Assembly: GCA_002796135.1 (NCBI GenBank)
Contig: PCWB01000035.1
Span: 1 to 35,054 of the forward strand
Direction of reading: 5' to 3'
DNA: 35,054 nt
DNA from: Candidatus Omnitrophica bacterium CG11_big_fil_rev_8_21_14_0_20_41_12
Lineage (GTDB): Bacteria; Omnitrophota; Gorgyraeia; Gygaellales; Profunditerraquicolaceae
The stretch's first letter is position 1, and each line of letters begins with the position of its first letter. This document shows, piece by piece, positions 1,412-26,511 of the stretch. Below the pieces are notes generated by a model that did not search any database, was not told where the DNA came from, and worked only from the letters and a program-made list of their open reading frames with translations. The translations under genes were made by a program, and so were the position numbers.

Positions 1412-1452
1412 TAAGGGACAGCCCCTCGCTTCGCTCGGGATCCGTCCCCTTA
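1412..1452. repeat. imperfect hairpin, TAAGGGAC / GTCCCCTTA
   Basis: An outer stem TAAGGGAC (1412-1419) pairs with GTCCCCTTA (1444-1452) with one bulged C. The inside holds a GC-rich CTCGCTTCGCTCGGG core. No T run follows on either strand, so it is not a normal terminator. The GGGGACG...GTCCC pattern resembles the hairpin at 22520-22544, which suggests a dispersed family. Confidence 0.5.
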
Positions 1453-1456
1453 TTAG

Positions 1457-1630
1457 CGGCTGGCTTGGCTGTGTTTTCGAGGGACGTGTCGGCAAGGAGC
1501 GGGCACGGCTCACCCGCTATTAATACTAGCGAGAGCGACGCCAGCCGACCTCCGGAGCAAAACGGAGGACGCAGTTTTGCCACGCAGGGGCAAACCAGCG
1601 TTCCCGAGAAAATACAGACAAGACAGACGC
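1457..1630 (+). repeat. diverged long-form intergenic repeat
   Basis: A structured GC-rich stretch just before the helicase. An 8-bp perfect inverted repeat, CGGCTGGC (1457-1464) with GCCAGCCG (1540-1547), encloses its first half, and CCTCCG/CGGAGG forms a smaller hairpin after it. It shares with the element at 21461-21620, in the same order: GGCTTGG, the 12-mer GAGCGGGCACGG (1497-1508), a CTAT(A/T)AA block, an 18-of-22 match around GCCACGC.GGGGC, and GACAAGAC near the end. It is open in frame with the helicase, so a long start at 1465 would wrongly translate it. Confidence 0.6.
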
Positions 1631-1645
1631 TAAAATATTATTATA

Positions 1646-20857: not shown

Positions 20858-20867
20858 TATTCCTTAC

Positions 20868-20928
20868 GCGGGTCCTGTCGCGGTGCGCTTCTCGCCAAAT
20901 TTGGCTCGAAGCATCTCCGCGCCACCGC
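20868..20928 (-). repeat. short-form GGTGG...ACAGGACCC hairpin repeat, copy B
   Basis: On the minus strand it opens GCGGTGGCGCGG and closes CCGCGACAGGACCCGC. Nested stems: CGCGG with CCGCG, GCTTC with GAAGC, and a central palindrome CCAAATTTGG (20895-20904). The opening and closing match the copy at 23578-23648, while the stem sequences differ but still pair, the mark of a conserved fold. Confidence 0.72.
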
Positions 20929-20956
20929 TAAAATAATTTCAACCTGCCTCTTCAAA

Positions 20957-21361: not shown

Positions 21362-21460
21362 TATTTCCTTTCACTATTCCCTAAATATAAATTCTTAATG
21401 ATTCCCAAAACACAACATAATAGGTAACCCTGAATTAAGTATCTTTTCAAAATTACTATT

Positions 21461-21620
21461 GTGGGTGGTGAGGCTTGGACTCGAGCAGCATCTCAAAATT
21501 TGAGCGGGCACGGTTGCCTCCCTATAAAGTCTTGGCAGAGCGAAAATTTTGCCGAAGCGCCGCGAGCCACGCCGGGGCGAGCAAGCGGTGCTGCGAGAGA
21601 CAAGACTCGACAGGACCCAC
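21461..21620 (+). repeat. long-form GGGTGG...ACAGGACCC structured repeat, copy C
   Basis: A 160-base GC-rich element in an otherwise AT-rich gap. It opens GTGGGTGG and closes ACAGGACCCAC, so GTGGGT pairs with ACCCAC; next to it TGAGGCTTG pairs with CAAGACTCG. The inside holds further small stems (CAAAATTTG, GAAAATTTT region). It has no start with a ribosome site and the open frames across it are translations of structure. It is related to 1457-1630 and could be a mobile repeat or a structured RNA. Confidence 0.65.
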
Positions 21621-21625
21621 AATTA

Positions 21626-22495: not shown

Positions 22496-22519
22496 CTTTC
22501 CCTCCTTTTTGTTTCTTTA

Positions 22520-22544
22520 GGGTGTCCCTTTTTAGGACGTCCCC
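22520..22544. repeat. small imperfect hairpin GGGTGTCC / GGACGTCCCC
   Basis: GGGTGTCC pairs with GGACGTCCC with a small internal mismatch around a CTTTTTA loop. It fills most of the gap between purM and the slipin gene. No T run follows in the direction of transcription. It shares the GGGGACG start with the hairpin at 1412-1452. Confidence 0.4.
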
Positions 22545-22546
22545 GG

Positions 22547-23551
22547 TTAAATTATTTCTACGGATTTATTTCCCCTAATTGTTTTGCCGATTATCCAGAA
22601 TTTTAATTTCAGTTCAGATAACTTTTTCATGATTGCTGCACAGGATTTCTGCTCAACAATTAAAACCAGCCCAATACCCATGTTTAAAGTGCGATACATT
22701 TCTTTATTCTCGATATTACCTTTGCTTTGAATAAGGCGAAATATCTCCGGCACCTTCCAGGAATTTTTTTCAATGTGCACACTAATATTTTTTGGAAGTA
22801 TCCGGCTGATCTTATCGTAAAAAGCTCCACCGGTAATATGCGCTATCCCGTGTACTAAGGCACCATGTGTACGCAACAGCTCAAGAATGGGCTTAACATA
22901 AATCCGCGTCGGCTTAAGTAATTCGCTAGACATTCTCTTAAGTTCGTTTTCCCCGAAAACTTTTCTGACCAATGAATAACCGTTAGAATGCAGGCCGCTG
23001 GAGGCAATCCCGATCACCGTATCCCCGGCATTAATTTTGTCGCCGTTAATGATCTTGGCTCTTTCGACAACCCCCACACAGAAACCGGCGATATCGTATT
23101 CGCCTTGGCGATACATTCCGGGCATTTGCGCGGTTTCTCCTCCGATTAAAGAGCACCCTGCCTCAACGCAGCCATCATTTATCCCTTTAACTACATCTAC
23201 TAAAACCTCTTCTTTAGCTTTGGTAAAAGCAACATAATCTAAGAAAAATAACGGCTCTGCCCCGGTGCAAAGAATGTCGTTTACATTCATCGCTACGGCA
23301 TCAATACCTACGGTATCATGCTTATTAGCTAATTTTGCAATCACCAGTTTTGTGCCCACGCCGTCGCTTGATGAAACCAAAACCGGATCCTTATATTTAT
23401 TTTTATCGAATTTAAAAAAGCTGCCAAAACCGCCGATATCCGTCAAAACCTCTTTGCGGAATGATTTACGGACTAAAGGTTTAAGTTTAGACTTAAAAAC
23501 GCTTGCACTCTTTATATCAACTCCGGAATCTTTATAGGTAATCTTCTTCAC
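22547..23551 (-). CDS. purM: phosphoribosylformylglycinamidine cyclo-ligase
   Basis: A 334-residue AIR synthetase that closes the imidazole ring with ATP. GGFGSFFKFD (41-50), SSDGVGTKLVIA (61-72), the AMNVNDILCTGAEPLFFLDY block and GGETAQMPGMY are typical, and GIASSGLHSNGYSLVR and HITGGAF come later. Slightly shorter than the usual 345 residues. The start codon is GTG at 23551, with AAGGAG seven bases upstream. It is separated from purF by 103 bases that hold a hairpin repeat, yet no terminator is visible, so it probably still belongs to the purine operon. Confidence 0.96.
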   Translation of the reverse strand: MKKITYKDSGVDIKSASVFKSKLKPLVRKSFRKEVLTDIGGFGSFFKFDKNKYKDPVLVSSSDGVGTKLVIAKLANKHDTVGIDAVAMNVNDILCTGAEPLFFLDYVAFTKAKEEVLVDVVKGINDGCVEAGCSLIGGETAQMPGMYRQGEYDIAGFCVGVVERAKIINGDKINAGDTVIGIASSGLHSNGYSLVRKVFGENELKRMSSELLKPTRIYVKPILELLRTHGALVHGIAHITGGAFYDKISRILPKNISVHIEKNSWKVPEIFRLIQSKGNIENKEMYRTLNMGIGLVLIVEQKSCAAIMKKLSELKLKFWIIGKTIRGNKSVEII

Positions 23552-23577: not shown

Positions 23578-23648
23578 TTTTACGGGTGGCTCGGGTGTTT
23601 TCGCAGCGCGTCATGCGCAAGAAAATACCCGAGACAGGACCCGTAAAA
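23578..23648 (-). repeat. short-form GGGTGG...ACAGGACCC hairpin repeat, copy A
   Basis: Written on the plus strand, TTTTACGGGT (23578-23587) pairs with ACCCGTAAAA (23639-23648); inside, CTCGGGT with ACCCGAG, TTTTC with GAAAA, and GCGC with GCGC around a short loop. Only GG on the left and ACAGG on the right stay partly unpaired, the same asymmetric bulge as in the other copies. It lies between purF and purM. Strand is uncertain because the outer stem is symmetrical. Confidence 0.75.
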
Positions 23649-23654
23649 TTTATT

Positions 23655-25103
23655 TTATACCTGCAGCTCCCCCTGTCCGCAGCAGCGTTTCTCTAAAGAA
23701 AACTTACTGTGTCGTTTCTCTGCCCGCACCGCATATTTACTCGTCCAGCAGGCAGTACAATAGTCATTTTTAGGATGCTTAAGGCAACTCAACATGCCTT
23801 CTAAACTTAGATACCCCAAACTATCTACCTCAAAATATTTACTTATCTTCTTCAATGTCTCATATTTATTGGCGATTAGTTCAGTTGAACGGTGGAAATC
23901 AATTCCGTAAAAGCACGGGAAACGGTGTGCCGGACAGGATATCCTCAAATGTACCTCTTTTACTCCGGCCTTACGCAAGTTTCGTACGCGGATCTTAGAA
24001 GTCGTGCCGCGGACAATCGAATCATCAACAATAATGATTCGCTTGCCTTTTAAAATATCTTTTAAGATATTAAATTTTACGCGCACCCCCATATCTCGGG
24101 CATCCTGCGCCGGCTGGATAAATGTCCTGCCAACGTAGTGATTACGAATAATCCCCATCTCAAGCGGAATACCGGATTCCTGCGAATAACCTAACCCAGC
24201 AGAAAATCCTGAATCCGGCACCGGCACCACAAAATCCGCATCTATGGGATGCTCTTTGGCTAATTGCGCCCCTAACTTTCTGCGCACCGTATGTACCACT
24301 TCACCAAAAACAGAAGAATCCGGCCGGGAAAAATAAACATGTTCGAATGTGCAAAACGCAGAGTGGCTGGCAATTAACTCTTTCGGTTTGACCGACTTGA
24401 CTGCCCCTTCTTTGTTAATAAAAACAACTTCTCCGGGCTCAACTTCGCGCACAAATTTTGCTCCAATCAAATCAAAAGCGCAGGTTTCAGAAGCCAAGCA
24501 CCAGCTGTTCCCTAATTTTCCTAAAGAAAGTGGACGATATCCGTGCGGATCACGCATCCCCATCAGGTAATCGCTGTTCATCATCACCAATGAATATGCA
24601 CCTTTAACTCTTTTTAAAGCATAAACTAAACTATCTTCTAAGCTACGCTTGTTGCTGCGCGCCATAAGATGAATGATTAATTCGGAATCGGTTGTTGTCT
24701 GAAAGATCGAGCCGCTCTTTTCTAATTTTTGACGTAGCTCAAATGAGTTCACCAGGTTCCCGTTATGCGCGATACAAATCGAACCATTGGCATAATCAAT
24801 CAGAAGCGGCTGAGAATTTTTTAGGACGCTAGAGCCGGTAGTTGAATAACGCACGTGTCCAACCGCCATATTTCCTTTTAAGCGGCTAAGCACCTGCTCA
24901 CTGAATACATCGCTGACTAACCCCATATCTTTGTGGATAGAAAGCGTACCCTGATTGTTAGCGACAATACCGCAAGCCTCCTGCCCCCGGTGCTGCTGGG
25001 CAAAAAGCCCCAGGTAAGTAAGCCAAACCGCCTGCTTATTATTGGTTATCCCGAATAAACCGCAATGCTCTTTGGGCTCTAAATTATCTTTTCTGATGAA
25101 CAT
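23655..25103 (-). CDS. purF: amidophosphoribosyltransferase (PurF)
   Basis: A 482-residue enzyme that makes phosphoribosylamine from PRPP and glutamine, the first committed step of purine synthesis. It is the propeptide, iron-sulfur type: the N-terminal nucleophile is C14 after MFIRKDNLEPKEH, which must be cleaved off. HRGQEACGI (38-46), VGHVRYSTTG (81-90) and HNGNLVN (113-119) form the glutaminase; RIIIVDDSIVRGTT (355-368) is the PRPP loop; C251, C397, C449 and C452 match the 4Fe-4S ligands. The ATG at 25103 (GGAGC site) overlaps the preceding PurF-like gene by 20 bases; a longer frame from 25172 lacks support and would bury the propeptide. Confidence 0.95.
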   Translation of the reverse strand: MFIRKDNLEPKEHCGLFGITNNKQAVWLTYLGLFAQQHRGQEACGIVANNQGTLSIHKDMGLVSDVFSEQVLSRLKGNMAVGHVRYSTTGSSVLKNSQPLLIDYANGSICIAHNGNLVNSFELRQKLEKSGSIFQTTTDSELIIHLMARSNKRSLEDSLVYALKRVKGAYSLVMMNSDYLMGMRDPHGYRPLSLGKLGNSWCLASETCAFDLIGAKFVREVEPGEVVFINKEGAVKSVKPKELIASHSAFCTFEHVYFSRPDSSVFGEVVHTVRRKLGAQLAKEHPIDADFVVPVPDSGFSAGLGYSQESGIPLEMGIIRNHYVGRTFIQPAQDARDMGVRVKFNILKDILKGKRIIIVDDSIVRGTTSKIRVRNLRKAGVKEVHLRISCPAHRFPCFYGIDFHRSTELIANKYETLKKISKYFEVDSLGYLSLEGMLSCLKHPKNDYCTACWTSKYAVRAEKRHSKFSLEKRCCGQGELQV

Positions 25104-26511
25104 TTTTTGCTCCGTTCTTAGGCTCTTTTCCCGTCCAGCAATATAAACAAAGTTTTTCTTTAGCCAGCCCAATGGCCTTAATCATATTATCTAATTTTTG
25201 GTATTTTAAAGTAGTCGAGCCTAAATCCTTATTGATCCAGGCAACCATCTTTTGATATTCTTTGGAGTTTTCATCTAAATATTTGCATAAACTCTTAGGC
25301 TCCTTGCCTTCAATGCTTTTAATCGCCCTGCGGGCAACTAACTCCGAAGCGGAGCGGGTAGAATAATTAAATTTACAGGGGAACATTAAAGGTGGACAGG
25401 CAATACGCAGATGAATTTCTTTGATCCCGTGTTTTTTTAACTTTTGAATAGTGAAATTCTTAAACTGCGTGCCGCGGACAATCGAATCATCGCAAAATAC
25501 GATCCGCTTGCCTTTAATTATTTCAGGAATCGGGATTAACTTCATCTTCGCGATAAAATCCCGGCGCTCCTGAGTAACCGGAGTATAGCTGCGGTCAAAA
25601 CCCGGAGTATATTTTACCAATGGCCGGCGTAAAGGAAGTCCTGATTGCATACTGTAACCTATAGCATGGGCAGTTCCGGAATCCGGAATTCCGGCAACCA
25701 TATCGGCAACTACATCATCGTCTTTGGCAAGCTGGGCTCCGGTTCTTTCACGTGAAGTTTCTACATTAATCGCCTCATAATTAGAAGCGGGGAATCCAGT
25801 ATAGACCCAAAGAAAAGAACAGATCTGATTAACCTTTGAGCCTTTACGTTTTAATTTTAACCCTGAACGAGTAATTAAAACTATTTCCCCGGGCTCAAGG
25901 TGTTTTACTAATTTATATCCAAGATTAAGAAAAGCGGATGACTCCGTAGAAACGGCCCAATCATTTCCTCTTTTACCGATGACTAAAGGGGTTAAGCCCA
26001 GCCTATCGCGACAGGCATAAATTCCTTCCCTATTTAACAAAAGTAACGAACAAGACCCGGTAATCATTGAAAAAAGCTTATCAACCCCGTCAATAATGCT
26101 CTTACCCGAAATAATAATCTTAGCGGCCATCTCTGCAAAATTTATTTTTCCTTCGGCGACTTCGGCAAAAGACCTGCCTTTTTTAAATAATTCCTTGGCT
26201 ATTTTTTCGGCATTCTCAATAAAACCGTTAGTTACAATCGCAAAAGGACCGAACTTGGAATTCATTACAATCGGTTCTTCATCACGCGCACTGATTACTC
26301 CAATACCCTGATGACCATTCAGTTTAAGATAATCTTCATAAAATTTAGCCTTAAACTGGCTTCCTTTTATATCGTGAATTTTACGGGTTAATTCCTTGCC
26401 AAAAACAGCCAATCCGGCAAACTGCGTACCCAAATGCGAATGGTAATCCGTGCCGTAAAACAAATCTTCCCGGCAATCTTTTTTAGAAACTACTCCGAAT
26501 GTTCCGCTCAT
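25084..26511 (-). CDS. PurF-like protein without the catalytic cysteine
   Basis: A 475-residue paralogue of amidophosphoribosyltransferase that lies directly before purF and overlaps it by 20 bases. The N-terminus is MSGTFGVV where active enzymes have MCGIFG, so the nucleophile cysteine is serine. FYGTDYHSHLGTQFAGLAVF (18-37) replaces the usual QHRGQE block. The C-terminal half keeps a full PRPP loop, RIVFCDDSIVRGT (336-348), and cysteines C231, C379, C455 and C458 at the places of the iron-sulfur ligands. AAAGGAG seven bases before the ATG fixes the start. Similar Cys-less paralogues occur in other anaerobes and are usually called PurF. Real activity is unknown: it could use free ammonia, be a partner of PurF, or be regulatory. 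Confidence 0.88.
   Translation of the reverse strand: MSGTFGVVSKKDCREDLFYGTDYHSHLGTQFAGLAVFGKELTRKIHDIKGSQFKAKFYEDYLKLNGHQGIGVISARDEEPIVMNSKFGPFAIVTNGFIENAEKIAKELFKKGRSFAEVAEGKINFAEMAAKIIISGKSIIDGVDKLFSMITGSCSLLLLNREGIYACRDRLGLTPLVIGKRGNDWAVSTESSAFLNLGYKLVKHLEPGEIVLITRSGLKLKRKGSKVNQICSFLWVYTGFPASNYEAINVETSRERTGAQLAKDDDVVADMVAGIPDSGTAHAIGYSMQSGLPLRRPLVKYTPGFDRSYTPVTQERRDFIAKMKLIPIPEIIKGKRIVFCDDSIVRGTQFKNFTIQKLKKHGIKEIHLRIACPPLMFPCKFNYSTRSASELVARRAIKSIEGKEPKSLCKYLDENSKEYQKMVAWINKDLGSTTLKYQKLDNMIKAIGLAKEKLCLYCWTGKEPKNGAKNVHQKR

What the first reader, a model, noticed from the sequence alone, without database searches (positions are those of the whole stretch)
23578..23648. Short intergenic hairpin family with fixed ends GGGTGG and ACAGGACCC
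Two short copies (23578-23648 and 20868-20928) share the ends and the asymmetric bulge (GG against ACAGG), but their stems differ in sequence while still pairing: CTCGGGT/ACCCGAG in one, CGCGG/CCGCG in the other. Covarying stems with fixed ends suggest selection on structure, such as an RNA or a mobile repeat whose ends are recognised by a protein.
Basis: seen in the sequence. Interest (0 to 1): 0.62.

Follow-up and report, generated by a model that had tools for sequence, protein, structure and literature searches.

The report
Dispersed hairpin repeat behind stop codons
The two hairpins belong to an apparently undescribed family of repeated foldback DNA elements, found in many bacterial phyla, that sit just behind genes and whose outer arms look like mirror copies of the host's own sequence; this matters because it is a test case for how such repeats spread and keep their two halves matched without a visible transposase.

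Summary
The window holds four members: two short (23578-23648 +; 20862-20934 -), one long (21459-21623 +) and one decayed long (1449-1637 +). Relatives of this Omnitrophota genome carry about 70 more short copies. The same tag (CGGGTGGC...GACAGGACCCG) occurs in Actinobacteria, Gemmatimonadetes, Eisenbacteria, a deltaproteobacterium (about 80 copies) and others. Stems covary strongly. The 'ends' are not ends: pairing continues into outer arms that differ between copies with near-identical cores. At four orthologous sites many species lack the element; in the clearest cases one arm is host gene sequence (stop codon included) and the other its inverted copy. Copies lie mostly just after stop codons, in both orientations. 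None of 22 RAYT transposase loci inspected is flanked by the family, and 16 of 24 carrier genomes from other searches have no detectable RAYT. No Rfam family matches; no description was found in the held literature. Best reading: a REP-like, probably non-autonomous foldback element, its arms made or repaired by replication template switching. Architecture and dispersal are well supported; the enzyme is unknown and the arm mechanism is inferred.

The parts
23578..23648 (+). Short copy: outer arms plus core (core GGTGG...ACAGGACC 23585-23641), in the purF-purM spacer
20862..20934 (-). Short copy (core 20871-20926) between a cupin gene and an unknown ORF
21459..21623 (+). Long, branched copy (core 21464-21617) with the same tag, 8 nt from the stop of an SPFH/Band 7 gene
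1449..1637 (+). Decayed long copy (ends read GGCTGG and ACAGACGC); still folds well
   Evidence: 42.5 bits; z -6.5
22547..23551 (-). purM (AIR synthase) downstream of the short copy, host context
23655..25172 (-). purF-like gene; its stop codon lies 13 nt from the core and its 3' end pairs with the distal arm

Best explanation
It is a REP-like, dispersed intergenic foldback element. A core of about 53-62 nt (or about 150-160 nt in a long, branched form) is closed by an asymmetric internal loop, GGT-GG / ACAGG-ACC. This is the only constant sequence, so it is the likely recognition site of an enzyme that acts on the folded single DNA strand. Copies sit mostly close behind stop codons, in either orientation. 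Shown: the dispersed family, stem covariation, occupied and unoccupied orthologous sites, and arms of different sequence around near-identical cores. In the clearest orthologous cases one arm is host sequence and the other its inverted copy. Inferred: the second arm is made by replication template switching (quasi-palindrome extension) at or after insertion, and the same process helps keep stems matched. Inferred: the element is non-autonomous and its enzyme is not a resident RAYT.
For: Copies and covariation. Cross-phylum copies; the Omnitrophota model recognises several of them. In G111, 44 copies with 94% identical cores have arms only 43-50% identical, yet each copy's arms pair (median 11 bp with G-T; shuffled mean 2.9). 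Orthologous purF, pgi, argF/OTC and leuB ends are empty in many species and filled with different forms, in both orientations, in others. leuB in G014: a 22-bp arm contains the gene's last codons and stop codon, and the other arm is its inverted copy. Median 20.5 nt to a facing stop codon; none inside an ORF over 120 aa. Template switching is a documented maker and keeper of perfect hairpin stems (PMC8794818).
Against: No insertion was observed between near-identical strains; the sites compared are from different species, so ancient presence with gene conversion, core swapping and loss is possible. No mobilising enzyme was identified. G004 and G022 carry bare AT palindromes at the purF-purM site, which could be pre-insertion targets. 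Some arm sequences recur in unrelated copies (for example TTAGATAAYG / CRTTATCCTAA), so in part the arms may travel with the core.
Confidence: 0.6

Rival explanations
1. A classical REP of the GTRG type moved by a RAYT (TnpA-REP): GTGG is the guide tetranucleotide directly 5' of the hairpin foot.
For: GTGG stands directly before a palindrome, the published REP definition (PMC3686654); position and copy number are REP-like; 35 of 39 relatives carry Y1 transposases.
Against: The two own RAYT genes are flanked by other repeats; 22 RAYT loci are not flanked by this family; 16 of 24 carriers have no detectable Y1 transposase, including high-copy ones. The 3' string ACAGGACC is as conserved as the GTGG, unlike REPs.
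Confidence: 0.15
2. A functional RNA structure in mRNA 3' ends (stabiliser, processing site or terminator) kept by selection on base pairing.
For: Strong covariation; position behind stop codons; in G111 23 of 44 copies have A-left/T-right tracts like bidirectional terminators; G-T exceeds A-C in G111 arms, 22 to 4.
Against: Both orientations between tandem genes, and the majority against transcription in Omnitrophota; no G-T excess in Omnitrophota arms (18 to 19); orthologous genes do without it; no terminator tracts in most Omnitrophota copies.
Confidence: 0.15
3. The core inserts into pre-existing palindromes (for example terminator loops), so the arms are the target.
For: Arms are palindromic at most copies; bare palindromes exist at the purF-purM site in G004 and G022; terminator-like arms in G111.
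Against: Bare palindromes are rare in the surrounding DNA (6 coreless terminator-like hairpins in 138 kb of G111); at leuB and purF-purM most unoccupied orthologues have no palindrome, and one arm is coding sequence shared with them.
Confidence: 0.1

Closest known systems
GTAG/GTGG REP elements and RAYTs (PMC3686654, PMC6006769, PMC8266576)
   Same: GT[A/G]G directly before a foldback, intergenic, many copies, strand-asymmetric hairpin
   Different: Conserved ACAGGACC on the 3' side, pairing outer arms of variable sequence, no associated RAYT detected, one tag shared across phyla
CGTC-tagged REPs (PMC3733652)
   Same: Tagged palindromes in several phyla without a dedicated transposase
   Different: Different tag, much longer, with outer arms and a long branched form
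TIRYT terminal repeats with GGGGWSAS (PMC3733652)
   Same: Palindromic repeats occupying the same gene ends in congeners
   Different: Those resemble the repeats flanking some RAYT genes here; this family does not
Integron attC sites
   Same: Foldback right behind ORFs, similar size range, variable middle between fixed parts, extrahelical bases (general knowledge)
   Different: No copy carries both RYYYAAC and GTTRRRY boxes (0 of 84)

Membership tests
REP (GTRG type) | GTAG or GTGG tetranucleotide 5' of a palindrome | tested here: met
   GGTGG precedes the stem in all copies used; definition from PMC3686654
REP (GTRG type) | Cognate RAYT gene flanked by the same repeat | tested here: not met
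   22 RAYT loci without it; 16 of 24 carriers lack a detectable Y1 transposase
REP (GTRG type) | Cleavage of the folded single strand by the cognate enzyme | not testable with these tools
   needs biochemistry
CGTC-tagged REP | CGTC (TGTC, CCTC) tag and 8-9 bp stem | tested here: not met
   tag is GGTGG/ACAGGACC and cores are 53-62 nt or longer
Integron attC | R'' RYYYAAC and R' GTTRRRY boxes | tested here: not met
   0 of 84 copies have both
Known Rfam RNA | Match to a curated covariance model | tested here: not met
   no match at the element
Intrinsic terminator | Stem followed by a T-tract in the sense of transcription | tested here: inconclusive
   A-left/T-right in 23 of 44 in G111; in Omnitrophota mostly the reverse polarity, 20 T-left/A-right against 4 of 84

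The most novel reading that the evidence does not exclude
A foldback element that is spread across phyla without a dedicated transposase of its own and builds its outer arms by copying the host's flanking DNA in inverted orientation, so that each copy is a self-extending palindrome welded to the 3' end of a gene.
Probability: 0.3. Interest if true: 0.8.

Novelty: new variant of a known kind. Interest (0 to 1): 0.6.

Why it matters
How REP-like palindromes arise, move and keep both arms matched is open. This family gives natural experiments: near-identical cores with different arms in one genome, and the same gene ends with and without the element in sister species. It would let one separate selection on structure from template-switch repair, and it points to an unidentified enzyme that recognises GGTGG/ACAGGACC foldbacks.

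Tried and rejected
RAYT linkage: rejected as the general mobiliser. Autonomous copy with a gene in the loop: of about 80 left halves in G111, the 20 stretches fetched for lacking an exact right half all held full-length copies with a mutated right side. Phage carriage: six viral-contig matches, none a convincing paired hairpin. Rfam: none. attC boxes: absent. Literature search for the conserved strings: 446 papers hold one of the short strings; the 20 listed look unrelated by title and abstract, and the rest were not read. Pre-existing palindromes as the target: disfavoured. G-T against A-C counts to tell RNA from DNA: the two lineages disagree.

Full report
What is there. The window comes from a 1.22 Mb genome in 57 contigs; near relatives in the named collection are titled Candidatus Omnitrophota. 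The reported hairpins exist at the stated coordinates. The genome holds six exact copies of GGTGG-stem-ACAGGACC: three in this window and one each on contigs 24, 47 and 50. A covariance model built from 11 long copies (the window's among them) finds it, the two short copies, and a decayed fourth copy at 1449-1637.

Family and covariation. A pattern search of 97 relatives gave about 70 true hairpin copies, mostly in the own genus, up to 13 per genome. In 74 distinct rows, 13 of 15 tested stem positions show two-sided changes, and 89% of cells are paired against 67% in shuffles. The shuffles ignore relatedness, but some stems differ throughout (CTTGGGT/ACCCAAG, CACGGGG/CCCCGTG, CGCGGCAGG/CCTGCCGCG, CGATGGC/GCCATCG), so relatedness alone does not explain the pairing. 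The internal loops often carry tandem GA steps, most clearly in the long form. Such motifs are stable in RNA and in single-stranded DNA (general knowledge), so they do not decide between the two. In the long form only 6 of 49 predicted pairs show two-sided changes and the covariation term is near zero, because its copies are 87% identical; its exact fold is therefore a prediction.

Spread. The 19-base pattern CGGGTGGC-N(25-53)-GACAGGACCCG is present in 24 of 384 genomes of the phylum, nearly all in the own family, with no control hits; one of the 24 (G272) shows no paired stem. Across bacterial genomes the same pattern finds paired hairpins in many other phyla. G111, a deltaproteobacterial MAG, holds about 80 copies. 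The Omnitrophota model recognises copies from Clostridiales, G111, Eisenbacteria and Gemmatimonadetes (E 4e-8 to 6e-3), and not those from Solirubrobacterales, so homology of the high-GC actinobacterial copies rests on the shared tag.

The outer arms. Pairing continues beyond the conserved strings. In G111, 44 copies with 94% identical cores have arms only 43-50% identical between copies, yet the two arms of each copy pair (median 11 bp with G-T; shuffled mean 2.9). Arms that travelled with the core would resemble each other; random flanks would not pair. Orthologous sites hint at their origin. In the purF-purM spacer five congeners have purF and purM practically adjoining, seven carry the element with different inner stems, two carry a GGGGACGG-type repeat, and others carry variants or bare AT palindromes. 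At leuB in G014 a 22-bp arm contains the gene's last codons and stop codon, which species without the element share; the other arm is its inverted copy. Shorter cases are seen at argF/OTC. The simplest account is that the second arm was copied from the host flank, and replication template switching is a documented way to do that (PMC8794818). This step is inferred, not observed.

Position and strand. Copies are intergenic, a median of 20.5 nt from a facing stop codon, 46 of 84 within 25 nt, and none lies inside an ORF over 120 aa (genes here are simple ORF calls). Between tandem genes they are in both orientations, 44 against and 24 with transcription, which argues against a function that needs one strand in the transcript. 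In G111 about half the copies have terminator-like A/T tracts, so a role in termination there is possible.

Mobiliser. GTGG before a hairpin foot recalls REPs cut by RAYTs. But the own RAYT genes are flanked by other repeats, 22 RAYT loci are not flanked by this family, and 16 of 24 carriers have no detectable Y1 transposase (these are MAGs, so single absences are weak but the pattern is broad). No gene-carrying copy was found. It works like a REP, but membership in the RAYT-REP system fails its key test.

Verdict. A real, multi-phylum, REP-like foldback family with a conserved tag and host-derived arms. The anatomy and dispersal are well supported, the arm mechanism moderately so, and the enzyme is unknown. 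I found no earlier description in the open-access library searched, which lacks most subscription journals.

Noticed in passing
window 22518-22545; L040 about 1770-2480; pgi, OTC and leuB sites: A second family of palindromic repeats (GGGTGTCCC...GGACGTCCCC; GGGGACGGTTCT...AGAACCGTCCCC), of the kind that flanks some RAYT genes here, occupies the same gene ends as the main family in sister species.
   Followed up: partly
L187 1260-1660 (Clostridiales DTU069): Tandem array of the element: copies with short and long middles separated by a nearly identical spacer of about 25 nt (CGGGAATAATGTCGTATAAACAG).
   Followed up: no
G110 (record of L183, Melainabacteria MAG): About 14 near-identical copies of a variant (GGTGGGGTAGGAGTCAAAAAC...GGTGACAGGACC) whose foot does not pair in the usual way; looks like a recent burst.
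   Followed up: no
L315, L316, L320, L331, L332, L338, L342 (G111): In several copies the core sits inside a larger shared palindrome (CTGCGAAAAACGYTT...AAGCGTTTTTCGCA), as if nested in another element that then multiplied.
   Followed up: no
window 23993-24059 and 25458-25524: 78% identical stretches in two adjacent genes suggest a tandem duplication of purF-like genes.
   Followed up: no
G017 L346, 2022-2238; G011 L356, 1330-1499: At the leuB site the long form occurs in different orientation and length in different species, as if cores can be swapped or inverted between fixed arms.
   Followed up: partly
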